Below, piece by piece: positions 10,806 to 43,233 of a stretch of DNA of 64,000 nt. Position 1 is the stretch's first letter. Every line of letters starts with the position of its first letter. This DNA comes from Bacteroidales bacterium (GTDB taxonomy: Bacteria; Bacteroidota; Bacteroidia; Bacteroidales; UBA932). Position numbers and translations under genes: made by a program. The stretch is taken from NCBI GenBank assembly GCA_017427885.1, contig JAFRRW010000011.1, positions 525,008 to 589,007 of the forward strand, written 5' to 3'. The notes beneath the pieces were generated by a model. It saw only the letters and a program-made list of their open reading frames with translations. It was not told where the DNA came from and made no database searches.

Positions 10806-10813
10806 TATCTTTG
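10806..10813 (+). promoter_or_regulatory. -7 element for the small lipoprotein
   Basis: TATCTTTG matches TAnnTTTG and lies 22 bases before ATG 10836. Because the in-frame ATG at 10791 is upstream of this box, the box supports the shorter start. A TTTG at 19 bases upstream is not present. Confidence 0.5.
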
Positions 10814-10835
10814 TACAAACATAGCCGTTATTGAT

Positions 10836-28549: not shown

Positions 28550-30694
28550 ATGTCCCAAAGAGATCTTCAATACACCAGGAACATCGGTATCATCGCCCAC
28601 ATCGATGCCGGGAAGACCACCACGTCCGAACGCATCCTTTACTATACCGGCAAGATCCACAAGATCGGTGAGGTACACGAGGGTGCGGCCACGATGGACT
28701 GGATGGTCCAGGAGCAGGAGAGGGGAATCACCATCACCTCCGCTGCTACCACGGCGTTCTGGCACTACAATGGGAAGACTTTCCAGCTCAATCTCATTGA
28801 TACTCCGGGACACGTGGACTTCACGGTCGAGGTGGAGAGGTGCCTGAGGGTTCTCGACGGGTGTGTTGCCACGTTCGACGCCGTCGGACGCGTCCAGCCC
28901 CAGTCGGAGACCGTCTGGCGCCAGGCCGACAAGTTCCGGGTGCCGAAGATCGCTTACGTGAACAAAATGGACCGCGTCGGCGCTGATTTCCTCGCCTGTG
29001 TCGAGGATATCAGGGCCAAGTTCGGCACCAATCCTGTTCCCGTCTGCCTCCCTATCGGGGCAGAGGACAAATTCCAGGGAATCGTCGACCTTCTCGGCCG
29101 TAAGGCCATCATCTACGATTCCGACAACGAGGAACTCATCAACTTCCGTGAAGAACCCGTTCCCGAAGACATGCTGGACGAGGTCGAACTCTGGAGGGAC
29201 AGGCTGGTTCAGGCTGCCGCCGAGTGCGACGACGACCTCATGGAGAAATATTTCGACGATCCGGATTCCGTCACGGTGGAAGAAGTCGTCGCAGCCCTGC
29301 GCAAGGGTACCATTTCGATGAAACTGGTCCCCGCCACCTGCGGCTCTTCCTACAAGGACAAAGGCGTGCAGTTCCTGCTGGACTGCATAGTCCGCTATCT
29401 TCCTTCTCCCCTGGACATCGGCGCCATCAAGGGCACCGTTCCGGCTACGGGGCAGGAGAAAGAACTTCTCCCAGACGCCTCCAAGCCTTTCTGCGGACTC
29501 GTGTTCAAGATTGCCACCGATCCCTTCGTGGGTCGTCTGGCCTACATAAGGGCCTATTCGGGAACTCTCGATTCGGGCACTTCCGTCCTGAACACCCGCA
29601 CCGGCAGGAAAGAGAGGGTGAACAGGCTCTACCAGATGCACTCCAACCACCAGAATCCCATCGATGCCCTGGAGGCCGGAGACATCGGAGCCGCCATCGG
29701 TTTCAAGGATCTCCGCACAGGAGACACCATCTGTGACGAGCGTCATCCCGTTTTCCTCGAGTCGATGGAGTTCCCCGAGCCCGTCATCGGGATCGCGGTG
29801 GAGCCCAAGACCCAGACCGACCTGGACAGGCTGGACATTTCCCTGGCGAAGATTTCAGAAGAGGATCCCACGTTCACCGTGAAGGCTGACACTGAAACTG
29901 GCCAGACCATCATCAGCGGTATGGGAGAACTCCACCTGGACATCATCGTCGACCGTCTCCGCAGGGAGTTCGGTGTGGAAATCAACCAGGGCGCTCCCCA
30001 CGTCAATTACCGTGAGGCGGTCACGTCCACCGTACAGTGGCACGAACTGTTCAGGAAACAGACTGGAGGACGCGGGAAGTTCGCAGATATCGTGTGCGAG
30101 ATCGGACCTGCCGACGAGGGAGTCAACGGGCTCCAGTTCGACAGCCAGGTCAAGGGTGGTAACATTCCGAAGGAATTCATCCCCAGCATCCAGAAGGGAT
30201 TCGAGGCCGCAATGGCCAACGGAGTCCTTGCCGGAAACGAGATGCAGTCCCTGAAAGTTACCGTCCTTGACGGTTCCTTCCACCCGGTGGATTCCGACCA
30301 GCTTTCCTTCGAGATGGCGGCCCGCCAGGCTTTCCGCCATGCGTGCCCCAAATGCCATCCGGTCCTCCTCGAGCCCATAATGAGCCTCGAGGTGGTGACC
30401 CCGGAGGAGTATATGGGAGACATCGTGGGAGACCTCAACCGCAGGCGCGGCCAGATAAGTGCAATGGATTCCTCGGCCAACGGAGCCAGGATCATAAAGG
30501 CGTTCGTCCCGCTTGCCGAGCAGTTCGGCTACGTGACTGTCCTCCGTACCCTGTCCTCCGGCCGGGCCACCAGCACGATGACGTTCCATCATTATGCGGA
30601 AGTCCCCGCCTCTCTCGCCAGAGCGATCGTGGAGAGAAGCGGATATCGTCTTCCGGAAGATTTTTATTCAGATTCTACAGAGAATAACAATTAA
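28550..30694 (+). CDS. fusA: Elongation factor G
   Basis: The 714-residue GTPase drives translocation and, with RRF, ribosome recycling. G motifs are AHIDAGKTT (P-loop), RGIT (switch I), DTPGHVD (G3) and NKMD (G4). Domains II-V follow in normal order, with the domain IV motif GGRGKFADI near residue 508. ATG 28550 is preferred to an in-frame TTG at 28544. Length is slightly above the E. coli protein. tuf does not follow, as usual in Bacteroidota. Confidence 0.98.
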
Positions 30695-30699
30695 TCGAT

Positions 30700-31005
30700 A
30701 TGAGTCAAAAAATCAGAATCAAGCTCAAATCATTCGACCACTCGCTCGTCGACAAGTCGGCGGCGAAGATTGTCGACACGGTGAAGGCCAGCGGCGCAAA
30801 GGTCAACGGCCCCATTCCTCTTCCTACCAACAAGAAGATTTTCACCGTCAACCGCTCGACTTTCGTCAACAAGAAAGCCCGCGAGCAGTTCGAACTCGAC
30901 TCCTATTGCAGGCTCCTGGACATCGACGACAGCAATGCAAAGACCGTCGACGCCCTCATGAAGCTCGAGCTTCCTTCGGGAGTTGAAGTCGAAATCAAGG
31001 TCTGA
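30700..31005 (+). CDS. rpsJ: 30S ribosomal protein S10
   Basis: The 101-residue protein (also the transcription factor NusE) starts [21 protein letters not shown] and holds [10 protein letters not shown] and [31 protein letters not shown]. It is 5 bases after fusA. In most Bacteroidota rpsJ continues into rplC; here the next elements are a CCGG-rich stretch and tRNA-Met, so the S10 cluster is broken at this point. Confidence 0.98.
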
Positions 31006-31050
31006 GGCGCTGTTTAGAACAGTTTCCGAAAAGATTTTGTAAATTCGCAG

Positions 31051-31086
31051 GCCGGATTATGTCCGGCATTGCGCCGGCTTAGGCCG
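31051..31086 (+). other. CCGG-rich double hairpin after rpsJ
   Basis: Two adjacent small hairpins, GCCGGA-TTATG-TCCGGC (31051-31067) and CCGGC-TTAG-GCCGG (31073-31086), lie between rpsJ and tRNA-Met. Neither is followed by a T-run. They could be transcript-end protection after rpsJ or part of the tRNA leader. A near-consensus -7 box TAAATTCG lies just upstream (31040-31047), which may serve the tRNA. Confidence 0.4.
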
Positions 31087-31091
31087 GTTCC

Positions 31092-31165
31092 GGTCCCATA
31101 GCTCAGTTGGTTAGAGCATCTGACTCATAATCAGGGGGTCGTAGGATCATGCCCTACTGGGACCA
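31092..31165 (+). tRNA. tRNA-Met (anticodon CAT), elongator-like, or tRNA-Ile2
   Basis: Acceptor GGTCCCA with TGGGACC, D arm GCTC/GAGC, anticodon stem TCTGA/TCAGG with loop CTCATAA, 5-base variable loop, T stem GTAGG/CCTAC. The normal 1-72 pair and anticodon stem without three G-C pairs rule out the initiator. The T-loop is ATCATGC, so A54 and T58 replace the near-universal T54 and A58. A CAT anticodon can also be tRNA-Ile2 with a lysidine. Confidence 0.85.
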
Positions 31166-31170
31166 CGTAA

Positions 31171-31200
31171 GAAGCCATCGCAGACGCGGTGGCTTCTTTC
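31171..31200 (+). terminator. Terminator after tRNA-Met
   Basis: An 11-base-pair stem (GAAGCCATCGC with GCGGTGGCTTC, one G-T pair) around the loop AGAC, followed by TTTCGTG. It lies directly after the tRNA. The 31197-31314 interval after it holds no supported gene. Confidence 0.65.
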
Positions 31201-31314
31201 GTGTCTACGATGGCCTTCTGTCGAATGAGGGGGCGGACCCCCTCAAACTCCTCCCGGTCGCATCGCTCCGAGATGTTACTATCCTCTCTTCTTCGATCCG
31301 ATCGTTTAAAGTGT

Positions 31315-31322
31315 TATCTTTG
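31315..31322 (+). promoter_or_regulatory. -7 element for the dicarboxylate symporter
   Basis: TATCTTTG matches TAnnTTTG, 16 bases before ATG 31339. A weak TTCG stands at the -33 position with 19-base spacing (31292-31295). This rules out the longer in-frame start at 31189. Confidence 0.55.
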
Positions 31323-31338
31323 TACATTAAGAAACGAT

Positions 31339-32553
31339 ATGGATAAACGAAATAACGGCTTTCTTAAGAATTACAAGGTCACCTTGCTGCTCCTGTTGGG
31401 CTTGCTGGCGGGAGGCGTGCTGGGCGTCGTTCTCGGAGAAAATGCCCAGGTCCTGCGCCCCGTGGGAGCATTGTTCCTGAATCTGATTTTCGTTCTGGTC
31501 GTACCGCTGGTCTTCTTCTCCGTAGCCCGATCCCTGATATCTCTGCATCAGAGCGGCATCATCGGGAAGGTGCTTGGGACGGCCATCTGCGTTTTCCTGT
31601 TCATGTCATTGGTGGCGGGGATTTTCTCCTTCGGACTGATGTCTGTCTGGAACCCCTTTGCCCAAATGACACGTGATGGCACCGCGGCCCTTCCCGGGGG
31701 TGTATTGGGAGAAAGCGTGAACATCGGTGACGCAATCGTCGCGGCCTTTACAGTAAACGATTTCCCCCTGCTTCTCTCCCGTGAACATCTTCTACCCCTT
31801 TTGATATTCGCAGCGCTGTTCGGCCTGGCCGTAGCCCTTCTCGGTCAGAAGGCCGAAGCGGTAAGGACACTGGTCGCGGAAGGAGAGGGGGTCGTGATGA
31901 AGATGATGGAGATCATAATGAAAGTGGCTCCCATCGGCTTGGGATGCTATTTTGCAGATACCGTCGGAAAGCTTGGAGGTCAGATAGTCGGTGATTATCT
32001 GCAGGTCTTTCTCGTAGTTTGCGCGGCCTGTATTATCTGTTACCTGCTGTTTTTCTCCCTCTATGCCGTTTTCTGCCATATCCCTTTGGGCAATTTCTGG
32101 AAAGAGATGATTCCCCCGTCCGCAACGGCCGTCGGAACCTGCTCCTCGGCGGCCTGCATACCCGTCAATATGGTTGCCGCCAGGAATCTGGGAGTCAGGG
32201 ACAGCATATCCAACGGTATAATCCCGCTGGGGACCAATCTTCATAAAGACGGCTCTGTCATCACTTCCGTCGCAAAAGTTCTCTTTGCCCTTTATTTCTT
32301 CGGAGCTGCTCCCGGAGGCCTGTCCACTGCGATCCTGGTGGTCGCCCTGGCGGTTTTGGAAAGCATCGTAGTGGGGGCCATTCCCGTGGGAGGAATGACA
32401 GGAGAGATATTCATCTGCGCAGTGCTGGGACTGGATCCTTCGTTTGCCGCCACGCTCCTGATAATCGGGACCATCTGCGACATCCCTGCAACGCTTCTCA
32501 ACGCCACAGGCAACCTTGTCGCATCGCTCCTTGTCCACCGGCTGGCAAAGTAG
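31339..32553 (+). CDS. Dicarboxylate/amino acid:cation symporter (DAACS family)
   Basis: The 404-residue membrane protein resembles the GltP/DctA/GltPh family, which imports glutamate, aspartate or C4-dicarboxylates with protons or sodium. It has about eight membrane segments and two re-entrant loops; the HP1-type serine-rich tip is TAVGTCSSAACIPVNMVAARN near residue 265, and the TM7 stretch near residue 297 has GIIPLGTNLHKDGSVI. HP2 appears near residue 346 (GAIPVGGMTGE). Length is typical. It has its own promoter and stands alone, convergent with the accessory operon. Confidence 0.9.
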   Translation: MDKRNNGFLKNYKVTLLLLLGLLAGGVLGVVLGENAQVLRPVGALFLNLIFVLVVPLVFFSVARSLISLHQSGIIGKVLGTAICVFLFMSLVAGIFSFGLMSVWNPFAQMTRDGTAALPGGVLGESVNIGDAIVAAFTVNDFPLLLSREHLLPLLIFAALFGLAVALLGQKAEAVRTLVAEGEGVVMKMMEIIMKVAPIGLGCYFADTVGKLGGQIVGDYLQVFLVVCAACIICYLLFFSLYAVFCHIPLGNFWKEMIPPSATAVGTCSSAACIPVNMVAARNLGVRDSISNGIIPLGTNLHKDGSVITSVAKVLFALYFFGAAPGGLSTAILVVALAVLESIVVGAIPVGGMTGEIFICAVLGLDPSFAATLLIIGTICDIPATLLNATGNLVASLLVHRLAK

Positions 32554-32577
32554 GGAGCAAGAGCTGGGTTTGTAAGG

Positions 32578-33171
32578 CTACATCAGTTCTCGGGGGCAGT
32601 CAACGCCAAGCAATTCGAAAAGATATTTTTTGTCCAAGGAAGTATAGCCACATTCTTCTGCCATCTCTAACATCTCTCGATAGTCTGGAGATGTATGAAA
32701 AAACTTCCGTTTGAAATAGTCGAATTTGATATAAGCCCAGAACAAATAATAGACACCTCGAGGTTCAATCATCGTCGCCGCATTGAGCAAAGACTCAATC
32801 TTGTCAATCCGTGCCCTGGGAGCCAGGAAGGCTTTCTGTCCTCCAAGGAGAGAAACAGCGGCATAAAAAAAAGTTTCCGAATTGTCTATATCATTCTCGA
32901 TCGCCTTCTCAAATGCCTCATATGCCTTTGAGTATAGTTTCAATTTCAGATAGCACATGGCGATTGACTGATTCAGTTCCGGAGAATCAGGCTGTTGGGA
33001 GAGTGCTTTCTGATAAAAACGGGAATACTTGTTCAGTCCCGGCAAGGACATCTCAGCGACACTGTTGAACGTTGATATTACAAGCGGGCGGCCGCAGGAA
33101 CACTCTTTCTGGTCGAGAGCCACAGGCCTTCCGCACCCGGGGCATTCCAGGTTCAATGTTTCCGCATTCAT
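32578..33171 (-). CDS. Zinc-ribbon protein with TPR-like helices (last gene of the envelope operon)
   Basis: The 197-residue protein starts with a short zinc ribbon, ECPGCGRPVALDQKECSCGRP (residues 9-29), then about 150 residues of helical repeats of TPR type (ELNQSIAMCYLKLKLYSKAYEAFEKAIEND near residues 64-93). No signal peptide, so cytoplasmic. It overlaps the upstream membrane gene by 4 bases, so it is the terminal gene of the 40551-32578 operon. It shares the zinc-ribbon start with the first protein of that operon, which hints at a common binding partner. Family unknown. Confidence 0.75.
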   Translation of the reverse strand: MNAETLNLECPGCGRPVALDQKECSCGRPLVISTFNSVAEMSLPGLNKYSRFYQKALSQQPDSPELNQSIAMCYLKLKLYSKAYEAFEKAIENDIDNSETFFYAAVSLLGGQKAFLAPRARIDKIESLLNAATMIEPRGVYYLFWAYIKFDYFKRKFFHTSPDYREMLEMAEECGYTSLDKKYLFELLGVDCPRELM

Positions 33172-33848
33172 TTGTCGTTTCCTGAGTTAAGAATCATATT
33201 CCGTTGCTTTGCCAAAGCGGAGATCAACTCGAGAGCACCGGATATTTGGGCCGAATCGGTTGGCAATGTCGTTTCCAATTTACCAATCTCTTCGAAAATG
33301 CGTTCTTCAATGTAACGTACCGAGGACGAGGAACGAGCAGGACTGAAAGAAATGTTTTCCGCTGTTTTCTCAATCAATTTGGATATATCCGGATCTTTCA
33401 CCAGGGTTTTCAGCAGCCGTAAGCGTAAGGGAGCATCTTTAACATAATTCAATTCCGCTTGCCGCCTTTCCTGTTGGTCTGCCGTGTTCTCATTGGCTAG
33501 CAGATGGACAAGCAGGGCTATGGCAAACAGTCCAAACAGAGCGATGTTCGACAATATCACGAATTTTGTCGATACCGGTTGGGCGAACAAGACGCCGACG
33601 TTCAGAAAAAATGCGATTATGAAATAGAGGCCGGCCAGGACATAAAGAGGTCTCCGGTAATCTTTCTCCGCCTTTCCCTTTCGGACTAGTGAGGGAACCG
33701 CCAACAATACGAAATAAGCGAACACCACAAACGAGAAAGCAAGCCACGTAGACGTATCTCGCGTTTCAGTAAGAGTGAAGAAAAAAATCAGGAAAACGAG
33801 GAGAAATACGGACTCCAACATTCTCCACATGATACGGGATCGACTCAT
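33168..33848 (-). CDS. Four-helix membrane protein of unknown function
   Basis: The 226-residue protein has four predicted membrane segments in its first ~115 residues (VFLLVFLIFFFTL, AFSFVVFAYFVLLAV, YVLAGLYFIIAFFL, ILSNIALFGLFAIALLVHL), followed by a soluble helical tail of about 110 residues that would face the cytoplasm. The tail holds SSSVRYIEERIFEEIG near residue 178 and a heptad-like pattern. It overlaps the zinc-ribbon/TPR gene by 4 bases and lies 2 bases after the SPFH gene. I recognise no family. A membrane anchor or sensor for the SPFH protein is a possible role suggested only by position. Confidence 0.7.
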   Translation of the reverse strand: MSRSRIMWRMLESVFLLVFLIFFFTLTETRDTSTWLAFSFVVFAYFVLLAVPSLVRKGKAEKDYRRPLYVLAGLYFIIAFFLNVGVLFAQPVSTKFVILSNIALFGLFAIALLVHLLANENTADQQERRQAELNYVKDAPLRLRLLKTLVKDPDISKLIEKTAENISFSPARSSSSVRYIEERIFEEIGKLETTLPTDSAQISGALELISALAKQRNMILNSGNDK

Positions 33849-33850
33849 GA

Positions 33851-34924
33851 CTATAATTGGCTAAGCAGTTCTTTTTTCTTGGCCTCAAAATCTTCTTGGG
33901 AAATAAGCCCCATGTCTAGAAGTTCCTTGGCTTGTTTCAGTTTTTCCATAATGGTATTGCTGCCTGTGGGGGCGACAGGCGGTGTCTGTACATTCTGGGG
34001 AGCGCCCTGCAGGGTTTGCTGGCCAAGATTGCCCAGGATGCCGCCAGCCGCTACGCCCATACCGATTCCGGCTCCTGCTGAAGTGAGGGCTCCCGCTCCT
34101 GGATTCTGCGCAACGGTCTTAAGAATGTCCACTTGCTGCTGGGCCGCCCAGTTGGCTCCCAGGTAGTTCATCCTTGCCCGATCGGTAATCATCTTCTGAA
34201 TCTCGGGATCCTCTGAAGTAACTTTACAGGACGCTACCGAGAATGCATCCAGCGCAAGGCCATACTCTTCCACGATCTTCGCAACGTGTGGTTGGATGAA
34301 GCGAGCCATGTCGACGACGTTGCGGACTGTTTCAAAGATGACTTTTCCGTCAGCTTTGAGGGCATCAAGAGTCTGGCTTAATGTATTTACGATATGCATC
34401 TGGAATTGGTTGGCGAAATACTTGTTCAGGCCCTCCTGTGTTTCATATGGGATATTGTTTCCGATGAGCTTGGATAAGAATTTTGCACTGTCGTCAACGT
34501 GGATTTTATAGGCCCCGTATGACTTTACCTGCAGATTTCCGAAGGTGTCATCATAATACTGAATGGGCGACATCGTCCCCCATTCAATCTCCTGGCTATG
34601 GGCCGTTCGGACGAAGTAAACAACACAGTTGAAAGAACTTACACCACCGGAAAAAGCATTCCTCAGACGACTGATGACCGGATAGTTCTGCGTGTCCAGT
34701 TTGTAAGTTCCATTTGAAAAAACCTGTTCAATGATACCGCCTTTCACGAAAAGGGCTTCTTCGCCCGGCATCACGATAAGGGTCGAGTTGGTATTGAAAT
34801 CCTCTTCCGGCTGCCGCCAGATCAAGAGATTACCGTCTCCGGAATTCTTGATTATGTCCACCCAGTGTTTCTTCCCGCCAATATATGCGGATTCGTTCGG
34901 GTTTCTGTTGTTGAAAAGTCCCAT
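33851..34924 (-). CDS. SPFH-domain protein with C-terminal SHOCT motif
   Basis: The 357-residue protein belongs to the virion-core/YdjI-type SPFH (band 7) group. The SPFH domain spans about residues 25-260 (LIVMPGEEALFVKGGIIEQVFSNG-type opening, then VKSYGAYKIHVDD). A Gly/Ala/Gln-rich segment near residues 275-320 follows, and the tail is a SHOCT motif (LKQAKELLDMGLISQEDFEAKKKEL). No signal or membrane anchor is evident; such proteins are soluble or attach peripherally and oligomerise through SHOCT-like helices. In other bacteria this group often lies near zinc-ribbon proteins, as it does here. Its role is unknown. Confidence 0.88.
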   Translation of the reverse strand: MGLFNNRNPNESAYIGGKKHWVDIIKNSGDGNLLIWRQPEEDFNTNSTLIVMPGEEALFVKGGIIEQVFSNGTYKLDTQNYPVISRLRNAFSGGVSSFNCVVYFVRTAHSQEIEWGTMSPIQYYDDTFGNLQVKSYGAYKIHVDDSAKFLSKLIGNNIPYETQEGLNKYFANQFQMHIVNTLSQTLDALKADGKVIFETVRNVVDMARFIQPHVAKIVEEYGLALDAFSVASCKVTSEDPEIQKMITDRARMNYLGANWAAQQQVDILKTVAQNPGAGALTSAGAGIGMGVAAGGILGNLGQQTLQGAPQNVQTPPVAPTGSNTIMEKLKQAKELLDMGLISQEDFEAKKKELLSQL

Positions 34925-34938
34925 GATATTGTAGATTA

Positions 34939-37161
34939 TTATTTTGACAAATAACGTTCGAGATCCTTGGGGGTGATGGTTCTCTTAATGCCCTGGATGA
35001 CAACCTCGGCTTTCCCCTCCTCAAAAGGTCCGGCCTTATCAAAGATAGCCTGAGTAATCTCCCCATTGCCGAGATAACCATAATAAGTTTCAAGATAGGA
35101 ATAACAGTAATACCCTGCTTCATCAGGAAAGTCAGAGAGAATTTTGAAGTCTCCAACTAACTGATTTTCTTTAAGGAGAGTTGTTCCCCCTGCGGGATCA
35201 AACACAAACAAAATCCAGGAAGAAGGGTGATAGTAATTATTGGCAACGGCAAGAATCGCCCCGTCTCCCCAGGAATCCTCACGATACTTTAGGATAGGGA
35301 TACTGATACCGGGGCCGACAGGACATATTTTTGCCAGTTCATTTTTACCTTGTTTCCCAGCCATGGCGATAAAGGAATCCCCATACTCAGAGAGAGCATC
35401 CCATCTGTTCCAGCCCTCGATAAGAGGGACCATATCATCAGTGTACGAGAGGGTCCCGTCCTTTGTAAAACAGATAGCTTGATCCGCTCCCATGGCGTTA
35501 CCTGCTTCATAGGCGTCACCATAAGGTCCTACTCCGAATACACGGATGTCATCCTTGCATACGACTGCGGCATATGGCAGGAAATCGGCAGAATATGTCC
35601 CAAGAATACGGCCTTGGCTATCCCTCAACGTAGTATTGTAGATGCGGTTGTCATTGTGTTGGGATTTTTCTCCCTTATCTTCGGTGGCGAAGATTCTTCC
35701 GTTTTTTAGGAGCAGCAAGCAAAAACTATCCTGGCTTACCGGATGCTCGGGAGAATTGACATCTCCGTCTTCACACCAGCGTGAAACAACACGGTCGCTA
35801 CCGTCCAATAGAACATACCAACGCTGAACGAAATAGGACTGATACGGACCATCAATGAACATATTGACAGCAAAGAGCGTGTACTCATCAACCCAACCGC
35901 CTAGATAGAAAACGAAAGAGAGGCTCTTCCAATCGTGTAACAAATCTGTCCCTCGCTTCCTGTCAAAAGCCGAGACTCGGGAAGTATTGATTGTTTTGAA
36001 CAGGGAAGACAGGACATTCCTGATATTTGGACCACCGTCACTGGCCAGGTATATAATAATGTCATCCGGTCGGGTATGACTGATCGAACCAGAGCACGAA
36101 ACAATCTCACCGGACTTGTTCATGACAACGGAGCCTTTGGGCTCGGTGTCGACAAACCAGATACCATCACCGGTTTTTTTAACATCCCCCAAAGAATGAA
36201 AGATGTCAATGTCTCTCGTTGTAGAAGGAGGTAACTGCCACGAGCGGCCCGCCTCCCCTTTCATTGATGCCGGCAATATCTTATCGCTTAGATAACTGCT
36301 TTGGGATTTGCGAAGTTCCTTTTCGTATTCGAGTGCCGACAAGCAACGGCCGTCGGAAAACAGCAACCACGGTTCCCCGTCTCGGAGGAATTTCATCACG
36401 TCACCAGTAAAGAGTGGCGGATTTTGAAACAGGAAATCGGTAAGCCTTTTCCCGTCAGGTTGAAAAACAGCATACAGTCCGTCCCGTTGGGCATATAGAA
36501 GGGAATTTTTCCCACCAGGGACAATGTCATCAAACTCAATTGGCAGGATAGGAGACAGATCGATTGCATTGAGAATGCCCTGTTTATCTGTTGTCCTGAC
36601 TCTCCATGCCTTGGCGTTGAAGACGATAGGTTTCTCTGAGAATACCGGAGAAATGAGGATACTGCCGTCTTTGCCTACAGCACCCCACAAACCGTCCTGG
36701 CAGAACCAGGCATAATCCCTATTGGAGAAAGGTTCCAATTCGTCCAGATCATCCGTAACGACAGATCCTTCCAAATTAATGAACCCCTTTTTCCCGTTCA
36801 GGGAGAAATAAACGACTCCGTCTTCCAAACCGGAAAGAGAATCATAGACAGGAGGGATGAAATACAAAGCGTCCCGCTGGAGATATCCGACTTTGTCACC
36901 TACGGAAACCATTGCAAGAATCCTATTTGCAGTGCTCTTGTCTTTTCTAAAGGGTTCCGCCGCATCAAATACAGGCTTGATGATGAAATCCTCTTTCTCG
37001 TTGACATATCCCCAAAGATCTTTTTTGTTGGACTGAGGGGTTATTTCTGAAATGAGATCTTTCTCTTTCAGTTGTTTAAGTTTCGGGTATGGAGGATTCT
37101 TCTCCTGTCCGAAAGAGGAGAAACCAATCAAAACGGTAAAGAGTAACAGGATCTTCTTCAT
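34939..37161 (-). CDS. Large exported WG-repeat protein
   Basis: The 740-residue product has a signal peptide (MKKILLLFTVLIGFSSFG). It then shows many WG-type repeats of the form GY/LWGYVNEKEDFIIKPVFD (near residue 44), GKKGFINLEG, DGLWGAVGKDGSILISPVF and DGLYAVFQPDG. Such repeats build beta-propeller or beta-strand stacks that bind proteins or surfaces; many Bacteroidota envelope proteins have them. The C-terminal half is divergent and also beta-rich. The ATG at 37161 is preferred over one at 37176 because the signal peptide starts there. It is the only clearly exported large protein of the operon, so it is likely the surface-facing part. Confidence 0.8.
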   Translation of the reverse strand: MKKILLLFTVLIGFSSFGQEKNPPYPKLKQLKEKDLISEITPQSNKKDLWGYVNEKEDFIIKPVFDAAEPFRKDKSTANRILAMVSVGDKVGYLQRDALYFIPPVYDSLSGLEDGVVYFSLNGKKGFINLEGSVVTDDLDELEPFSNRDYAWFCQDGLWGAVGKDGSILISPVFSEKPIVFNAKAWRVRTTDKQGILNAIDLSPILPIEFDDIVPGGKNSLLYAQRDGLYAVFQPDGKRLTDFLFQNPPLFTGDVMKFLRDGEPWLLFSDGRCLSALEYEKELRKSQSSYLSDKILPASMKGEAGRSWQLPPSTTRDIDIFHSLGDVKKTGDGIWFVDTEPKGSVVMNKSGEIVSCSGSISHTRPDDIIIYLASDGGPNIRNVLSSLFKTINTSRVSAFDRKRGTDLLHDWKSLSFVFYLGGWVDEYTLFAVNMFIDGPYQSYFVQRWYVLLDGSDRVVSRWCEDGDVNSPEHPVSQDSFCLLLLKNGRIFATEDKGEKSQHNDNRIYNTTLRDSQGRILGTYSADFLPYAAVVCKDDIRVFGVGPYGDAYEAGNAMGADQAICFTKDGTLSYTDDMVPLIEGWNRWDALSEYGDSFIAMAGKQGKNELAKICPVGPGISIPILKYREDSWGDGAILAVANNYYHPSSWILFVFDPAGGTTLLKENQLVGDFKILSDFPDEAGYYCYSYLETYYGYLGNGEITQAIFDKAGPFEEGKAEVVIQGIKRTITPKDLERYLSK

Positions 37162-37165
37162 GAAA

Positions 37166-37576
37166 CTAAGGTTCATCTATGATGTAGGATCTACCGCGGC
37201 AAGTCCTCGTAAGTCGGATGTATATTTTCCGGAGGGCAGTATAAACATTATATTTCTGTAAACATGCTATGGCATATTCTGAGCATGTCGGTTTACATAT
37301 ACATTTTCTGCGCATTTTTTCCGGGGCATAGTGCTGATAAGCTTCAATGCATAGAATCATGCCCTTTTTTATGTCAATGAAGAGAAGGAGAATCCAGATC
37401 AAAAGAAAGGGCCCCCAGAACCTATGCCAAAAAAACAGCGTTACCAACCCTGAAAGGCAGGCAAAGAGGCCTCTGGCCAGAATAAAAAAAACAATATTCC
37501 AGAAACTTGTCTGCGGCCTGGTTAGAGGACGTTTTTCGCAATAATCCCGTACTAACGCCTCTTCTTCACGTGTCAT
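37166..37576 (-). CDS. YidD-like membrane protein, divergent
   Basis: The 136-residue protein has two membrane segments (about residues 24-46 and 50-72). Its C-terminal part carries CKPTCSEYAIACLQKYN, the invariant YidD core (C-x-PTCS-x-YA). Canonical YidD continues with a conserved HPWHPGGYDPVP tail; here the tail is LTRTCRGRSYIIDEP. The N-terminal extra membrane part is also unusual. YidD helps YidC insert membrane proteins. A divergent copy inside this operon may serve its own membrane proteins. It overlaps the next upstream gene by 4 bases. Confidence 0.75.
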   Translation of the reverse strand: MTREEEALVRDYCEKRPLTRPQTSFWNIVFFILARGLFACLSGLVTLFFWHRFWGPFLLIWILLLFIDIKKGMILCIEAYQHYAPEKMRRKCICKPTCSEYAIACLQKYNVYTALRKIYIRLTRTCRGRSYIIDEP

Positions 37577-38178
37577 CCCTGTTTAATTTTCTTCTCGCGA
37601 AGCTTCTGCTTCATCCCTTCTATGGCAGCCAGATTGCGTTCCGTCATGTCAAGATATACCGTCTTCGTTTCTTCCGGAACTACGATGGAAAAAGCGACTT
37701 GCTTTATTTCTCCCCATAAAGTTTCTTTCGTAGTATAGAAATTCACGACATCCTCATAGAAGAATTCATCCGTCATTGCCCAACTAGCATTGCAATCCAT
37801 ACAGAATATTTCACGGTAGAAATAAATCTCATGATCGCTGAAAAATATCCAAGTTACCTGATATGCGGAAGACCGCCACTCCTTATCTTTACCTTGAACA
37901 GACAGAATCTGTACCCCATTAACCGGGATGGAATATGAATAACTATGTAAACAAATCGGAGGAATCTCCTGTACCTGACTCTCATCTATTCCCAACACCT
38001 CCAATGCTTTTTCTTTGTTAAAGGAAGACTGGACCTTGGTCGCGACCATCATTTCATACTGTTCGTCAGAGATGGTCTCTTTCCCAAGACAGCCGCCTTT
38101 ATTGGTAAAATACTCAACGACTTTTTGCCCCGTTTCTCCCGAAGGGACGTTAGTATAGACAATATTGTTATTACTCAT
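37573..38178 (-). CDS. Soluble protein of unknown function
   Basis: The 201-residue protein has no signal peptide or membrane segment. It appears mixed alpha/beta with a CMDCNASW element near residue 131 and a basic helical tail (GMKQKLREKKIKQG). The region SYSYSIPVNGVQILSVQGKDKEWRSSAYQVTWIFFSDHE looks like beta strands of a PH-like or lipocalin-like fold, which is only a guess. It overlaps both neighbours by 4 and 8 bases, so it is obligatorily part of the operon. I recognise no family. Confidence 0.7.
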   Translation of the reverse strand: MSNNNIVYTNVPSGETGQKVVEYFTNKGGCLGKETISDEQYEMMVATKVQSSFNKEKALEVLGIDESQVQEIPPICLHSYSYSIPVNGVQILSVQGKDKEWRSSAYQVTWIFFSDHEIYFYREIFCMDCNASWAMTDEFFYEDVVNFYTTKETLWGEIKQVAFSIVVPEETKTVYLDMTERNLAAIEGMKQKLREKKIKQG

Positions 38179-39274
38179 GATTCTTAATGTTGATTAATTG
38201 AAGTATGGATTTTTCCTTGTTGATATACAGTTCGTGTCCCTTGAATAACACTTTAAAATAGTCTCCTTCTTCGCCAATGCAGGGAAGGACTTCTCCTTCT
38301 TCCGGGCAAAGGGCGACACCTTTGTCATCCTTAAAGATTCCGAACTCATCAGGATCAGGCCCCAGTCGCAAACGATGTTTTTTGACCCTGACGCTGTCCG
38401 GCCAGGTCTTGATAACCTCGGGTTCGACAGGAGGGGTTGGCTCCGTCTCTTTTTCTTTCTTCTTGAGTCGTTCCAGGAAAGAAGGCTTTTGTTTTGAATC
38501 CTTTGTGGCAACGGAATCCGGAGGCAGGGTGGGCTTGTTTGCCGGAGTTTCAAGCCGGGGCGACTCTTCCCGGGGAAGTTTTCTGAGAGCCTCCTTCTCG
38601 AAAGAAAGGGGTCCGTGGTCTTCAGGTAAGATTATCACCTTCATCCCCACAAATGCGTAATTGTCGTGCAGGTGTATGATGTCTTCGTCCAGAAGCCGGA
38701 TACAGCCTTCGCTCCCGCGGCCTACTTTCAGTGATTCCCTGTTGTTCGTGCTTCCGTGGATTCCGATACCGGAGTGTCCGGGAACGGCCAGACGCATGAA
38801 CCAGTGCCCGTATGCAGGGATCGAACCCCTTCCGTCTCCGAAATCGTGATGCCAGTCCGACGCGTCCTGAATCTGTGTGATGGAGAAAGGCGGGCCCGGA
38901 TAGGATTCGGGTGTCTTGTTGTCTCCCCGGACCTGTTTCTGCCCCCGGTTTTTAGCAACACAAGCCGGATATGAGGCCAGCAGGAGCGTGTCTTTCCCCT
39001 GGACTTCATAGACGTTCAGGTGCTCCGGGTGGACTTTGGATATGACGATGAAACACTTGTTCCTGTCCCTGGCAGGAGCGATGACCCTTTTGACGGGGAT
39101 ACCGTCCTTGTCAAGGTCAAAAGTGAAGTCGGTGATCGAAGGATCTGTATTTCGGATTTCCGAAACGGATTCATCGAGTTTCGCCGGGTCATCTTTCTTC
39201 TCGCGGCTGCAACCTCCGCAAGAGGTCATAGGAGCCAGAAAAAGAATAGAGAACAAAATAGAAATCAGTCTCAT
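38171..39274 (-). CDS. L,D-transpeptidase lipoprotein with C-terminal SH3-like domain
   Basis: The 367-residue lipoprotein begins MRLISILFSILFLAPMTSC (Cys19). The YkuD catalytic domain shows HGSTNNRESLKVGRGSEGCIRLLDED near residues 186-211, with the nucleophilic Cys in SEGCIR and the upstream HGS motif. After a Pro/Glu/Lys-rich linker (residues ~235-300) comes an SH3b-like domain (DDKGVALCPEEGEVLPCIGEEGDYFKV-type). It probably forms 3-3 cross-links or attaches a protein to peptidoglycan. The gene overlaps both neighbours. The upstream frame to 39307 only adds residues before the lipoprotein signal. Confidence 0.85.
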   Translation of the reverse strand: MRLISILFSILFLAPMTSCGGCSREKKDDPAKLDESVSEIRNTDPSITDFTFDLDKDGIPVKRVIAPARDRNKCFIVISKVHPEHLNVYEVQGKDTLLLASYPACVAKNRGQKQVRGDNKTPESYPGPPFSITQIQDASDWHHDFGDGRGSIPAYGHWFMRLAVPGHSGIGIHGSTNNRESLKVGRGSEGCIRLLDEDIIHLHDNYAFVGMKVIILPEDHGPLSFEKEALRKLPREESPRLETPANKPTLPPDSVATKDSKQKPSFLERLKKKEKETEPTPPVEPEVIKTWPDSVRVKKHRLRLGPDPDEFGIFKDDKGVALCPEEGEVLPCIGEEGDYFKVLFKGHELYINKEKSILQLINIKNHE

Positions 39275-40551
39275 TGTACAAGAGAAGTATAATCCTTCGA
39301 TATCCAAACCTCTTCGCCGTTATAGCGAACCTTGTAGAAATCAGAGGCTTCGCCTACGTATTCAAGATAATCTCCTTTGTTAGGATGAACGTTATTACCG
39401 TAAAAGTCCGTTACGATCTCAGCCTCAAGGCTGGGTCCCCTGCGCAGGCGTACGTTCACGCCGGTCACGACGACGGACCTGGCGAACTGGGAAGAAGACA
39501 ACCCAGCAGCAGACACCGCGGCCTTGACACTTTTGGCAAGTTCCCCTATGTTGGTCCCATACTGGGCATCGTTCTTCTCAAAGACGGATTTTGCTTTTGC
39601 TTCATCGAACGATACAGCCTGGTTATATAGCCAGGCGCATCTGCTCTTCGTGACAGGGTCTTCATCAGATTTCGCGATGGCCGCGTAAAGTGAAGCAAGG
39701 GCACACTTGTGTTCGAAAGTCAGGGAGGAAGGATCCTCATAGATCTTTTCGCAAATCTTTTTAGCATCCCCCAGTTTCCCTTTGTCGAAAAGCTTCTGAG
39801 CCTTGGAAAGGCGAAGTGTCACGATATCATCAGGATAGTCTTTTTCTAAATTTTCGAGGGTTTGAGGATCGGGCAATTGGCTATTGTAAGCTATAAGTAC
39901 GTCACCGGAACTTTCATATTCGGATTCGTGCTCAATAACGTTGCTGAGGATATCCCAATAGCGTTTCTGGGCCGTTTCGCTAATTGTTTTGTCCTTATAA
40001 TTAGACAACAGATGATAATCCTTGGTTAACTTGCTAATCTGCCTGGCATTCAACGGCTTTTGTCTCTTGAAAATTTTCTCGCATTCAGCAAAGGCGGAGG
40101 GATAATTCTGAGTGGCAATAAAAGAGTCGGCCCGCTGTAAACGCTCGTCCACAGGCCGGTTTGTCAGCCTGAAAGCAAGAAACGCCCCAAGGATGAGGAG
40201 AACAGCAGCGGCAATTGAAAAAACCCGCACAAGTAAGGCTTTCTGCTTTTTCCGGATCAGTGCTTCTTCTTCTGCCTTGATGCGGGCTCGTTCTTCCGGA
40301 GTCATCCGTGCAAGCCGTTCCGCTTCCGCTCTGGCGGCGGCTTCCTCCGCCTCCCGCTTTTCTTTCAACTCTTGCTCTTTCCTGGCCTGTTCCTCTGCTT
40401 CTCTTTGTTCTCTTTCTTGTTTTTCTTTTTCCTCCCTTTCCTGAGTCTCCCTTACTTCTTTACCTGCAGCAAGTTCGGCACCACAAGAAGGACAGGTCCT
40501 CCATTTTTGTGAGACAGGGGCTCCGCAATGGGGACAACTTCCTAAAGCCAT
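39271..40551 (-). CDS. Zinc-ribbon, coiled-coil, membrane and SH3b protein (first gene of the operon)
   Basis: The 426-residue protein has, in order: a zinc ribbon CPHCGAPVSQKWRTCPSCG (residues 5-23) in the cytoplasm; a very charged Glu/Arg coiled coil (residues ~30-100); one membrane segment near residues 105-127 (AAAVLLILGAFLAF); a helical TPR-like extracytoplasmic region (residues ~130-340); and a C-terminal SH3b domain (VRLRRGPSLEAEIV...VGEASDFYKVRYNGEEVWISKD). It thus joins cytoplasm to cell wall. Its SH3b end resembles that of the transpeptidase next to it. It opens the operon, 134 bases from the promoter, and overlaps the transpeptidase gene by 4 bases. Confidence 0.8.
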   Translation of the reverse strand: MALGSCPHCGAPVSQKWRTCPSCGAELAAGKEVRETQEREEKEKQEREQREAEEQARKEQELKEKREAEEAAARAEAERLARMTPEERARIKAEEEALIRKKQKALLVRVFSIAAAVLLILGAFLAFRLTNRPVDERLQRADSFIATQNYPSAFAECEKIFKRQKPLNARQISKLTKDYHLLSNYKDKTISETAQKRYWDILSNVIEHESEYESSGDVLIAYNSQLPDPQTLENLEKDYPDDIVTLRLSKAQKLFDKGKLGDAKKICEKIYEDPSSLTFEHKCALASLYAAIAKSDEDPVTKSRCAWLYNQAVSFDEAKAKSVFEKNDAQYGTNIGELAKSVKAAVSAAGLSSSQFARSVVVTGVNVRLRRGPSLEAEIVTDFYGNNVHPNKGDYLEYVGEASDFYKVRYNGEEVWISKDYTSLVQ

Positions 40552-40618
40552 AATAGAAATAATTGTACGGGGACGGTATCACCCACGAATTAATTGGTTA
40601 TACAAAAGCGTTATACCG

Positions 40619-40644
40619 TTTCGTAAATCAAGGATTGTACGAAA
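40619..40644. repeat. Inverted repeat in the operon leader
   Basis: TTTCGTA and TACGAAA form a perfect 7-base inverted repeat around a 12-base loop, between the predicted promoter of the eight-gene operon and its first ATG. It could be a repressor site or a leader hairpin. No family operator was recognised. The rest of 40552-40775 holds no gene. Confidence 0.4.
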
Positions 40645-40685
40645 ACGCTCTCGTTAGTTATAGCGGCCATTTGGGAATGGCAATC

Positions 40686-40693
40686 CAAAGATA
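40686..40693 (-). promoter_or_regulatory. Promoter of the eight-gene envelope operon
   Basis: CAAAGATA on the plus strand gives TATCTTTG on the minus strand; GAAA at 40713-40716 gives TTTC at exactly 19 bases, one base off TTTG. The leader to ATG 40551 would be about 125 bases and contains an inverted repeat. Confidence 0.5.
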
Positions 40694-40775
40694 CTATTTT
40701 TCCGCCTTTTAAGAAAGCCAAGAGGCTGTTTTTTGAGAATGGCATATTGAAAATAGTCACGAAAAAAACGCTTGC

Positions 40776-42137
40776 TTACATTTCGAACTTCAGCGCTATC
40801 GGTTCCTGCGGGAGGCCGGCGGGCAGTTTCAGGGAGACCTTGCCGTCCTTGACGGTGGCGCGGACCTTCCTGCCGGTGTTGAGGATCGTCACCTTGCCGC
40901 GGGAAGGGAGGTTGCCGGTCCAGGCCAGTTCCGCCGGCAAGGTTTCACCGTCGGGGAGGGCGTAAACGGCGTAGAGCGTCCTGCCGTCCTTGGAGGCGTT
41001 GAACCAGATATTGCCGTCATTGTAGTTGTCCGTGATGCGGGTGCCGTAGAGGGACTCGCCGCAGCGCCGCAACCAGTCGCCGATCTCCTGCAGGATGACA
41101 ACGGCCTTTTCTTCGATGATCCCTTCAGGAGTCGGACCCACGCCGAGGACCATGCAGCCGCCCTTCGCCGTGATTTCGGCCAGGGTGCCGATAATGCGTC
41201 GGGCGCTTTTGAAGCGCGGGTTCGGAGTCCATCCCCAGTCGGTGCCGAGGGTCATGCAGGACTCCCAGGGATATTTGAGCTGGGTGGCCGGGACGGACTG
41301 TTCCGGCGTGCGGTAGTTCTCGTTGGGCCCCTGGATGGTGCGGTCCACGCAGATGAGGCCCGGACTTACCCTGCGAGCCTCCGGAAGGACATCGTCCAGA
41401 CCCACCTGGTCGCCCCTTATCCAGCCGCCGTCCAGCCAGAGGATGTCCAGTTTCCCGTAACGGCCCCCGGTGATCTCTCCCAGCTGGTTCTTCGTGAAGG
41501 TCACGTATTTTTCCCACCAGTCCGGGTGCATTTCCGGTTTGTAGTTGATGCCGCGGCGGGGAGTGGCGTAGTAGGGGTTCCAGAACCATTCGCAGTGCCA
41601 GTCCGGCTTGGAGAAATAGGCGCCGATCATGAAACCCTTGGGCCTGAAGGCTTCGAAGACGTATTTCGCGATGTCTTTCTTGGGATTGTCGGCGAAGGGA
41701 CCTGCCTTGGCCACCGTGAAATCCGTATATTCCGAATCGAACATGCAGAACCCGTCGTGGTGCTTGGTAGTGAAGATAACATACTTCATCCCTGCGTCCG
41801 CGAACACGTCGGCCCATTGCTCCGGATTGAACCCGACGGGATTGAACTCCTTCGAAAGGCCCCAGTACCACTGTTTGTAGCCCTCATAGGTCGATCCTTC
41901 CGGCCGGACGATCCAGTCCTCGTTGCACAGGTTCCAGGATTCCACTATGCCGGGGACGCTGTAGATGCCCCAGTGGAGAAGGACTCCGAACTTGAGGTCC
42001 TGCCATTTGTCAAGTTTTTCCAGGACCGCCGGGTCTGATGGCCGGACATATCCCTCTGACGAATCGTTTCCCTGCCCGGTCAGGGAAAAGGCGGAGGCGA
42101 ACAGGAGGGATAATGCGGATATGAGGAAATTTTTCAT
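40776..42137 (-). CDS. GH29 alpha-L-fucosidase, exported
   Basis: The 453-residue protein removes alpha-linked fucose from glycans. It starts with a signal peptide (MKNFLISALSLLFASAF). GH29 motifs: FGVLLHWGIYSVPG near residue 43, YVIFTTKHHDGFCMFDS near 116, and GKLDILWLDGGW near residue 225 with the nucleophilic Asp in the LDGG context. C-terminal beta-sandwich is present. Length is normal. It is the last gene of a minus-strand run, 1 base after the phosphatase-like lipoprotein. The frame extension to 42167 is not used because it adds residues before the signal. Confidence 0.93.
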   Translation of the reverse strand: MKNFLISALSLLFASAFSLTGQGNDSSEGYVRPSDPAVLEKLDKWQDLKFGVLLHWGIYSVPGIVESWNLCNEDWIVRPEGSTYEGYKQWYWGLSKEFNPVGFNPEQWADVFADAGMKYVIFTTKHHDGFCMFDSEYTDFTVAKAGPFADNPKKDIAKYVFEAFRPKGFMIGAYFSKPDWHCEWFWNPYYATPRRGINYKPEMHPDWWEKYVTFTKNQLGEITGGRYGKLDILWLDGGWIRGDQVGLDDVLPEARRVSPGLICVDRTIQGPNENYRTPEQSVPATQLKYPWESCMTLGTDWGWTPNPRFKSARRIIGTLAEITAKGGCMVLGVGPTPEGIIEEKAVVILQEIGDWLRRCGESLYGTRITDNYNDGNIWFNASKDGRTLYAVYALPDGETLPAELAWTGNLPSRGKVTILNTGRKVRATVKDGKVSLKLPAGLPQEPIALKFEM

Positions 42138-42138
42138 A

Positions 42139-43221
42139 TCAAAGGTTTTCAATGTCAAGAGGTTCACCCTGTCCTTCGTGGGCGGGGAGTTCTATCCCGA
42201 GCCATTTTGCCGCGGTGGGGGCTATCTGGTTGGTGTAATAATTGCCGGAGGTCAGGACTCCCTTCGCGGGTATTCCCTTGCCGTAAATCATGCACCAGGT
42301 TTCTCCGGAGCCGGGAGTTCCGGGCTTGCCGTGATCGGTCCACTGCTCGCGGGCTGAGCCCCGGCCGTGGTCGGTCGTCACTATGAAAATGGTCCTGTCC
42401 TTGTAGAAGGGGTCGCTCTGGGCACAGTCCCAGAGTTCCTTCAGGTACCTGTCGAAGTTGTGGCAGGAGAATATGGTCAGGTCGTACCTGTTCCTATGAG
42501 CCCAGTCGTCGGTCTCGGCATACCCTATGAAAAGGACCTCCGGATGGCGGGAACGCATCGCCTCGAGGGCATATTCGTGGGTTATCGCATCGGAGCGTAC
42601 CGAGCCCAGATATTCGGGGACCCCGTCCTGCAACCTGTGGATATATGCCTCATTATCTGTCGGGACGTATCCTTCCGGGAAAGAATAGAAGGCACCGCAA
42701 TTCACGGGAAAACCTGCGCGTTCTTCGTTGATGATATGGGTGAATGCATCCCAGCCTCCGAAGGCGAGTACCTTCCCCCTGTATCTGTCATCGTTGTTGG
42801 CATATTCCATCACAGACACATTCCTGTTGGGTCCGGGATTGTTGGAATTGGCGAATTCGTCGTCGGCGTGTCCGCAGATGATTTCGCTCCAGCCGGGATA
42901 TGAGAACCACATGTTGTTGGTCACGTCGAAGGTGGAACCGCTTTCCCGGTCTCCTATAAGGATTCCATTTTTTGCAACGAAATTCCAAGTGAAAGGCATC
43001 AGGGCTTCCCGACGCTCTTCACGGGTGTCTTTTACATAGGGCTTACCCATAGGATAACCTCCTATCAGAACGGGATCCACCCCTGAGAACACTTCCTGCC
43101 AGCGCAGGCCGTCGGTGCCGACGATGATCACCCTTACCCTTCCGTCATCTTTTTTCCCACACCCTGTGACAAGGGTGAGAACGGTCGCGATGATTGCGAT
43201 GAACGAGAATAACTTTTTCAT
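42139..43221 (-). CDS. Alkaline-phosphatase-superfamily lipoprotein
   Basis: The 360-residue protein has a lipoprotein signal ending LVTGC with Cys21. The alkaline phosphatase fold shows the metal-site blocks VIIVGTDGLRWQEVF near residue 31, MWFSYPGWSEIICGHAD near residue 107, TDDWAHRNRYD near 238 and VTTDHGRG near 285. It is closest to type I phosphodiesterase/nucleotide pyrophosphatase or sulfatase-like proteins. The nucleophile is probably the Ser in the SYPGWSEI block but I cannot fix it. Substrate unknown. It is 12 bases after the DUF4153 gene and 1 base before the fucosidase, so it may clean phosphate or sulfate from glycans. Confidence 0.85.
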   Translation of the reverse strand: MKKLFSFIAIIATVLTLVTGCGKKDDGRVRVIIVGTDGLRWQEVFSGVDPVLIGGYPMGKPYVKDTREERREALMPFTWNFVAKNGILIGDRESGSTFDVTNNMWFSYPGWSEIICGHADDEFANSNNPGPNRNVSVMEYANNDDRYRGKVLAFGGWDAFTHIINEERAGFPVNCGAFYSFPEGYVPTDNEAYIHRLQDGVPEYLGSVRSDAITHEYALEAMRSRHPEVLFIGYAETDDWAHRNRYDLTIFSCHNFDRYLKELWDCAQSDPFYKDRTIFIVTTDHGRGSAREQWTDHGKPGTPGSGETWCMIYGKGIPAKGVLTSGNYYTNQIAPTAAKWLGIELPAHEGQGEPLDIENL

Positions 43222-43233
43222 AAATATGTGTCA

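What the first reader, a model, noticed from the sequence alone, without database searches (positions are those of the whole stretch)
32578..40551. Eight-gene translationally coupled envelope operon with no recognised system name
Sequence shows eight minus-strand genes, most overlapping by 4-8 bases or lying within 15, in visibly AT-richer DNA than the flanks. Order: zinc-ribbon/coiled-coil/TM/TPR/SH3b protein, L,D-transpeptidase lipoprotein, unknown soluble protein, divergent YidD-like protein, exported WG-repeat protein, SPFH/SHOCT protein, 4-TM protein, zinc-ribbon/TPR protein. Parts map to all cell layers: cytoplasm (SPFH, zinc-ribbon/TPR), membrane (4-TM, YidD-like), cell wall (transpeptidase, SH3b) and outside (WG repeats). 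I infer a membrane-to-wall machine, perhaps stress- or phage-related; no single gene gives the function.
Basis: partly seen in the sequence, partly recalled or inferred. Interest (0 to 1): 0.7.

Follow-up and report, generated by a model that had tools for sequence, protein, structure and literature searches.

The report
Five-gene membrane-platform operon plus cargo
A gut bacterium carries a foreign-looking operon whose five-gene core recurs, mostly together, in unrelated bacteria; in some relatives the same slot of the operon holds a pump-like ATPase and toxin-like genes, so the core may be a membrane platform for handling exported proteins, for which no name was found.

Summary
In detail: eight tightly packed minus-strand genes (32578-40551) in AT-rich DNA. 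They are not one unit. Five form a conserved module: C (predicted PH-like fold), D (YidD-like), F (SPFH/SHOCT), G (4-TM), H (zinc-ribbon/TPR). In 80 genome loci found with C, H is in 75, D in 70, F in 62, G or its homologue X in 54. A, B and E had no match there. E sits in the D|F gap; in 14 of 80 loci a HerA-type ATPase follows D (between D and F in all 7 where F is on the contig), often followed by acidic-leader proteins with variable ends. Of 16 such cargo proteins scanned, two match toxin families above cut-off, one beside a SUKH immunity gene. The window genome (81% complete) lacks the ATPase; PspA is in 1 of 54 core-bearing genomes, so this is not a PSP system. Best reading: a laterally acquired inner-membrane platform that joins a HerA pump in some lineages and carries envelope cargo here. 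The module is solid; its function in the window is inferred. No paper found describes it, though the library holds open-licence papers only and most listed papers were not opened.

The parts
39271..40551 (-). Gene A (not core): N-terminal zinc ribbon, charged coiled coil, one TM (about 106-124), C-terminal SH3_3
   Evidence: no A match at the 80 core loci, though other zinc-ribbon-TM proteins sit near a few
38171..39274 (-). Gene B (not core): lipoprotein with L,D-transpeptidase (YkuD) domain; HG...SxGCIR motif present; shares sequence with A
   Evidence: 37.5 bits, cut-off 23.4; A-B similarity; start codon; lipobox and motif read by eye
37573..38178 (-). Gene C (core): N-terminal helices, beta-rich domain of PH-like fold, C-terminal helix with conserved LREKK
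   Evidence: AlphaFold2 pLDDT 91.6; Foldseek and VIA-align; 80 genome loci
37166..37576 (-). Gene D (core): YidD-like membrane protein with an extra hydrophobic N-terminal half and conserved Cys
34939..37161 (-). Gene E (not core): WG-repeat protein with a Sec-type signal peptide (by eye) in the D|F slot; longer start 37176 also possible
   Evidence: two full-length homologues above 50% identity among the 8000 candidates scored
33851..34924 (-). Gene F (core): SPFH/Band_7_1 protein with C-terminal SHOCT; only PF13421 match in this genome
33168..33848 (-). Gene G (core): 4-TM protein whose fourth helix runs into a long helix and helical tail; homologous to X of other Bacteroidota
   Evidence: AlphaFold2 pLDDT 89.9; hhalign G vs X probability 96.9%, E 1.7e-10
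32578..33171 (-). Gene H (core): zinc-ribbon/TPR protein without TM
40686..40693 (-). Possible Bacteroidota -7 box TATCTTTG upstream of A
   Evidence: pattern match only, consensus recalled

Best explanation
The operon holds a laterally acquired inner-membrane platform of five proteins plus local cargo. SHOWN (by sequence or prediction): the families C, D, F, G/X and H recur together; C is predicted to have a PH-like fold and G to be a four-TM protein with a helical tail; F is an SPFH/SHOCT protein and H a zinc-ribbon/TPR protein; in one subtype a HerA-type ATPase and acidic-leader genes, some toxin-like, sit between D and F. INFERRED: F oligomerises at the cytosolic face of the inner membrane, anchored by G; C and H act as adaptors; the YidD-like D links the platform to membrane insertion or passage. 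With the ATPase, the platform is the membrane part of a pump that engages acidic-leader proteins and moves them out. In the window the ATPase and toxins are absent and the slot holds an exported WG-repeat protein (E), while A (zinc ribbon inside, SH3 outside) and B (L,D-transpeptidase lipoprotein) tie the platform to the cell wall, so here it most likely supports assembly or export of envelope proteins.
For: Core recurrence: 80 loci, H 75, D 70, F 62, G or X 54; in the 43 loci with at least 4.5 kb on both sides of C, H 42, D 39, F 38, G/X 34. ATPase (A6) in 14 of 80 loci; F is on the contig in 7 of these and the order is D-ATPase-F in all 7. In Paludibacter L022 the order is C-D-ATPase-cargo-F-G-H where the window has C-D-E-F-G-H. 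L135 adds C-ATPase-cargo-F-G-H (no D called), L132 adds D-...-ATPase-cargo-F-G (no C or H called). ATPase-first searches gave six hits below 1e-170, one being the centre genome itself (L058): L058, L132, L160 and L161 have F within three genes on the same contig; L017 has F on another contig after toxin-like genes (L194); L162 has only a SHOCT fragment at a contig end. Toxin-like cargo: Colicin-DNase/WHH in L063 followed by SUKH; papain-fold glutamine deamidase in L193, a contig of the genome of L013. Acidic leaders (D+E at least 0.25 in the first 150 residues) follow the ATPase in 11 of 16 loci. L081: core beside EssC with YukD-like and WXG100-like ORFs, the last two judged by eye. L199: zinc-ribbon-TM gene and S11 carboxypeptidase between F and G, parallel to A and B.
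Against: The ATPase is absent from the window genome (81% complete) and, at E 1e-20, from 45 of 50 other core-bearing genomes; one of the five matches is distant. Most Bacteroidota loci are the bare core, so it must have a function without the pump. HerA-acidic-leader pairs also exist without F or the core (L136, L137, L210). Of 16 cargo proteins scanned only two match a toxin family above cut-off, six match below it and eight match nothing; the L022 cargo, my closest comparison, is among those eight and has no partner gene. Nine loci hold only H-C-D, four of them with room on both sides. Near homologues of E do not share contig lengths with near C homologues, so E may be a chance neighbour. 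No experiment supports any step.
Confidence: 0.45

Rival explanations
1. The core is an envelope-stress or membrane-repair platform that works like B. subtilis YdjGHI; the HerA-toxin cassette of some lineages is a hitchhiker in the operon.
For: F is in PF13421, which rings in B. subtilis; YdjG and YdjH are needed to bring the SPFH protein YdjI and PspA to the membrane, and their loss disturbs cell shape under alkali shock (PMC8581546, abstract and passages); band-7/zinc-ribbon operons are surveyed in PMC11237479 (passages). Most Bacteroidota have the bare core.
Against: PspA is in only 1 of 54 core-bearing genomes while 9 of 14 control genomes ring. None of the eight proteins has a TPM domain. 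Strong ATPases found by ATPase-first search lie near an F gene, two of them (L160, L161) without C, D or H in the fetched stretch, which a chance landing site does not predict.
Confidence: 0.33
2. The operon is part of a biological-conflict (immunity or anti-phage) system.
For: Patchy and laterally spread; TIR/TPR proteins beside C-D or F in L082, L160, L203; the ATPase of the relatives matches PADLOC HerA and mad8 models (E down to 6e-22) and the L160 TIR protein matches PDC-S66 and ThsB models weakly.
Against: No PADLOC match for seven of the eight window proteins and only marginal ones for A; no confirmed C match in viral contigs; the window genome has no such ATPase and the operon no obvious effector.
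Confidence: 0.12
3. An eight-gene wall-building machine as first proposed, with A, B and E essential parts.
For: Tight packing of all eight genes and a shared low GC.
Against: No A, B or E match among the ORFs of the 80 core loci; a metagenome contig seems to carry C and G without E (inferred from equal contig lengths).
Confidence: 0.08

Closest known systems
B. subtilis pspA-ydjGHI (ydjFGHI) operon
   Same: SPFH protein of the PF13421 family with zinc-ribbon and membrane partners
   Different: No PspA and no TPM-domain protein; PH-like C, YidD-like D and zinc-ribbon/TPR H instead
FtsK/HerA-ATPase secretion (type VII and relatives)
   Same: Some relatives of the core carry a HerA-type ATPase with toxin-like cargo; one lies beside an EssC-type gene (L081)
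   Different: The common ATPase has one DUF87 domain and its cargo an acidic low-complexity leader; all of this is absent from the window
YidD (TIGR00278, PF01809)
   Same: Gene D scores above both curated cut-offs
   Different: Extra N-terminal hydrophobic half; lies in this operon
Polymorphic toxin systems (PMC3482391, ten passages read)
   Same: Variable C-terminal ends and, in L063, an adjacent immunity gene in ATPase-bearing relatives
   Different: The passages read describe no SPFH/zinc-ribbon export module; YidD, zinc ribbon and Band do not occur in the held text

Membership tests
PSP / YdjFGHI envelope-stress system | PspA (PF04012) in the genome | tested here: not met
   0 in the window genome (81% complete); 1 of 54 core-bearing genomes (G257 and G544 are probably one genome); 9 of 14 control genomes ring
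PSP / YdjFGHI envelope-stress system | TPM-domain membrane protein in the operon | tested here: not met
   none of the eight proteins matches it; rest of the genome not searched
PSP / YdjFGHI envelope-stress system | SPFH protein of PF13421 | tested here: met
   123.1 bits, cut-off 24
PSP / YdjFGHI envelope-stress system | zinc-ribbon membrane protein (YdjG-like) | tested here: inconclusive
   A has zinc ribbon + TM but SH3_3, not the NTF2-like domain given for YdjG in PMC11237479
HerA-type toxin-export subtype of this core | HerA-type ATPase (A6) | tested here: not met
   no match in the window genome, 81% complete
HerA-type toxin-export subtype of this core | five-gene core C-D-F-G-H | tested here: met
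HerA-type toxin-export subtype of this core | acidic-leader toxin and immunity genes in the operon | tested here: not met
   A, B, E have D+E 0.13-0.19 in their first 150 residues; no toxin family in any of the eight
Type VII secretion | EssC-type ATPase and WXG100 in the operon | tested here: not met
   none of the eight matches; rest of the genome not searched
YidD family (gene D) | score above curated cut-offs | tested here: met
   34.5 vs 27, 45.1 vs 40
L,D-transpeptidase (gene B) | YkuD domain with catalytic His/Cys motif | tested here: met
   37.5 vs 23.4 bits; motif read by eye; activity not tested
PH-like fold (gene C) | PH superfold | tested here: met
Known anti-phage system | PADLOC model match of a window protein | tested here: not met
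   only marginal DruE / REase_II matches to A (best E 5e-4), none to the other seven

The most novel reading that the evidence does not exclude
The C-D-F-G-H core is the inner-membrane part of an undescribed HerA-driven effector-export system whose substrates are marked by an acidic low-complexity leader; the window holds a derivative that lost the pump and carries cell-wall-directed cargo (E, A, B) in its place.
Probability: 0.33. Interest if true: 0.85.

Novelty: new variant of a known kind. Interest (0 to 1): 0.6.

Why it matters
YidD has long lacked a clear mechanism (recalled), and bacterial SPFH platforms are poorly understood. A module that keeps YidD-like, SPFH, PH-like, 4-TM and zinc-ribbon/TPR proteins together in distant bacteria, and in some lineages joins them to a HerA ATPase with toxin-like cargo, makes the role of such platforms in protein traffic directly testable and may mark a new export route.

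Tried and rejected
Led nowhere: searches of C, G and F against solved-structure sequences gave no useful relative. Fold searches of G gave only generic helical matches. Viral contigs with C: 102 pattern matches, none confirmed. PHROGs: no match for B, C, D, E or G; A matches an amidase family over its SH3 region, F families over its SHOCT end, H one weak match. Rfam at 30500-43500: only the tRNA at 31092. Repeats at 30500-42500 are short and give no element ends. Plasmids: one C hit, in Bacteroides finegoldii NZ_OY725907.1, but that record carries rny, obgE, an adenylate kinase and hpt, so it looks chromosomal and was not used as evidence of mobility. Broader C-like proteins: of 20 C-positive genomes among 393, 4 are strong (window included) and 16 weak; ten of the 16 were fetched and show no other core gene except a weak D match in L140. 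Six PF13421 stretches of five Bacteroidales genomes were fetched: no C or D; weak H matches lie near F in L150, L153 and L155, and A scores E 1e-5 against a protein in L155.

Rejected: membership of the PSP system; the whole eight-gene set as one machine; viral origin.

Results against my reading, and rows set aside: the phylum of a locus is the record title's, mostly of metagenome bins; only Bacteroidota (36), Bacillota (35) and Spirochaetota (5) have more than one locus; the 'Elusimicrobiota' row sits beside a Clostridia row on a short branch and the 'Pseudomonadota' row inside Bacteroidota. In the C tree the window has a long branch and no starred neighbour. 8 of 943 unassigned ORFs carry an N-terminal zinc-ribbon pattern, so A-like neighbours are rare. 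Pfam over 64 flanking genes, picked from 114, showed no enriched partner beyond zinc ribbons in 4. The genome scan kept the best 80 of 83. One search took 50 of the 80 core genomes. The genome sets overlap, and their centre G543 was chosen because it has core and ATPase. Alignments hold part of the rows: A3 79 sequences, A4 32 (27 of 30 G), A5 21 of 23 X, A10 24. ORFs were called mechanically, so starts are approximate. One search scored only 84 candidates and only 8000. Of the 15 papers listed I opened two, of the 8 one.

Full report
What is in the window. Eight minus-strand genes run from 40551 down to 32578 with overlaps of 4-11 bases or gaps of at most 14. Their mean GC is 0.463 and GC3 0.508, against 0.557 and 0.699 in 44 other window ORFs of at least 150 aa. 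The flanks are a dicarboxylate symporter (Pfam SDF) and, by eye, a glycoside-hydrolase-like gene. F had no strong match in 36 same-genus genomes (one at E 6e-4; many incomplete). The operon therefore looks acquired. The window's order is Bacteroidales by inference: the same-order contig G257:C25 has the length of the named Bacteroidales contig of L059.

The core. C matches no Pfam, NCBIfam or PADLOC family above a cut-off and has 27 homologues, itself included, at E 1e-3 in the protein search (84 candidates scored). A scan of 84,980 species genomes with its alignment kept 80 of 83 loci. By record title 36 are Bacteroidota, 35 Bacillota, 5 Spirochaetota and one each Pseudomonadota, Acidobacteriota, Elusimicrobiota and Verrucomicrobiota; the single ones are metagenome bins and two sit oddly in the tree, so three phyla are safe. 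Profile HMMs find H in 75, D in 70, F in 62 and G or X in 54 of 80. In the 43 loci with at least 4.5 kb on both sides of C the numbers are 42, 39, 38 and 34. X, between F and H in many Bacteroidota, is a homologue of G (hhalign 96.9%, E 1.7e-10). Bacteroidota order is mostly C-D-F-X/G-H; Bacillota order mostly starts H-C-D. No ORF of these loci matched A, B or E. Nine loci hold only H-C-D, four of them with room on both sides, so H-C-D may be the smallest unit; most genomes of such loci have an SPFH protein elsewhere, often distant (21 of 22 genomes searched have one, truncated loci included).

The slot between D and F. In 14 of 80 loci an ATPase of about 890 aa follows D; Pfam calls it DUF87/HerA and the nearest solved chains are HerA proteins. 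In the 7 of these with F on the contig the order is D-ATPase-F. Two more loci were found otherwise: L135 (C-ATPase-cargo-F-G-H, no D called) and L132 (D, then other genes, ATPase-cargo-F-G; no C or H called on the stretches read). In Paludibacter L022 the order is C-D-ATPase-cargo-F-G-H; in the window it is C-D-E-F-G-H.

The cargo. In 11 of these 16 loci an ORF with an acidic leader (D+E at least 0.25 in the first 150 residues) follows the ATPase. L085 is just under the limit, L058 is masked there, L057 and L083 end, and L086 ends after two membrane proteins. Of 694 other ORFs of at least 130 aa in the 80 loci 13 are that acidic: nine are this cargo, one lies elsewhere in an ATPase locus and three outside. 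I scanned 16 cargo proteins of ATPase or F contigs with Pfam. Two pass a toxin cut-off: Colicin-DNase/WHH in L063, followed by a SUKH immunity gene, and papain-fold glutamine deamidase in L193. Six match below cut-off (metallopeptidase-like DUF6782, C39-like, Colicin-DNase). Eight match nothing, L022 among them. The metallopeptidase-like genes of L063, L085, L087 and L195 have a partner of about 98 aa downstream. A repeated YMNxHNYG-type motif occurs in the cargo of L019, L058, L060, L193, L194 and L197; the last three are contigs of the genomes of L013, L017 and L083.

Is the ATPase tied to this module? Searches with the ATPase alone in overlapping sets of 197, 391 and 375 genomes round G543 gave six distinct hits below 1e-170, one the centre itself. 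L058, L132, L160 and L161 have F within three genes; L017 has F on another contig after toxin-like genes (L194); L162 has a SHOCT fragment at a contig end. L160 and L161 show no C, D or H. Weaker ATPases (E 1e-27 to 1e-65; L136-L139, L163) lie without F; L136 and L137 are next to acidic-leader proteins, and a Priestia megaterium plasmid has an ATPase followed by a repetitive protein of D+E 0.23. So the ATPase-leader pair is wider than the core. Conversely 45 of 50 other core-bearing genomes and the window's have no such ATPase at E 1e-20.

Other neighbours. L081 has the core beside an FHA-FtsK EssC protein and ORFs that look like YukD and WXG100. L082 has a TIR protein after C-D, L160 and L203 TIR/TPR proteins beside F. 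L199 has a zinc-ribbon-TM gene and an S11 carboxypeptidase between an F fragment and G, which parallels A and B. L161 has a zinc-ribbon/TM/TPR gene between G and the ATPase. Such neighbours are rare overall.

Known systems. The nearest studied relative is B. subtilis pspA-ydjGHI (PMC8581546: abstract and passages). A 2024 survey describes band-7 and zinc-ribbon operons with PspA (PMC11237479: passages). PspA is in 1 of 54 core-bearing genomes, with 9 of 14 controls ringing, so the core is not a PSP system, although it may work alike. The 2012 polymorphic-toxin survey (PMC3482391: ten passages) does not hold the word YidD. Searches for SPFH with YidD, zinc ribbon, HerA, TIR domain or WG repeat and for YidD or DUF87 with polymorphic toxin gave no paper or only PMC7159879, whose SPFH and HerA mentions are in its reference list. 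One search listed 15 papers, of which two were opened.

Gene E. Ten homologues reach 1e-10 among the 8000 candidates scored, two full-length above 50% identity. Their longest contigs (38,339 and 13,033 bases) match none of those of near C homologues. A C homologue and a G homologue share a longest-contig length of 6,329, and no E homologue has that length. This is indirect, but speaks against E as a fixed part.

Verdict. The five-gene module is real and, as far as I could search, unnamed. Its tie to a HerA ATPase and toxin-like cargo in some lineages rests on gene position. What it does in the window, without the pump, is inference: most likely an inner-membrane platform for envelope protein assembly or export, with a stress platform as the main rival.

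Noticed in passing
L063, L085, L087, L193-L197, L132, L135, L160: HerA-type ATPase loci with acidic-leader proteins of variable ends and small partner genes; also without the core in L136, L137 and the P. megaterium plasmid L210.
   Followed up: partly
L081 7862-17192: Core genes, with two C copies, next to an EssC-type ATPase and YukD-like and WXG100-like ORFs.
   Followed up: partly
L082, L160, L203: TIR/TPR proteins with zinc-ribbon-like starts beside C-D or F.
   Followed up: partly
L199 497-2987: Zinc-ribbon-TM gene and S11 D-Ala-D-Ala carboxypeptidase between an F fragment and G.
   Followed up: partly
window 10791-11348: 185-aa DUF4823 protein of GC 0.39, the lowest among the window ORFs listed.
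   Followed up: partly
L209 (NZ_OY725907.1): Record filed as a plasmid carries rny, obgE, an adenylate kinase and hpt, so it is probably chromosomal.
   Followed up: no
L202, L203, L205, L206: F-G pairs, some with zinc-ribbon or TPR neighbours, in core-bearing genomes but apart from C, D and H.
   Followed up: no
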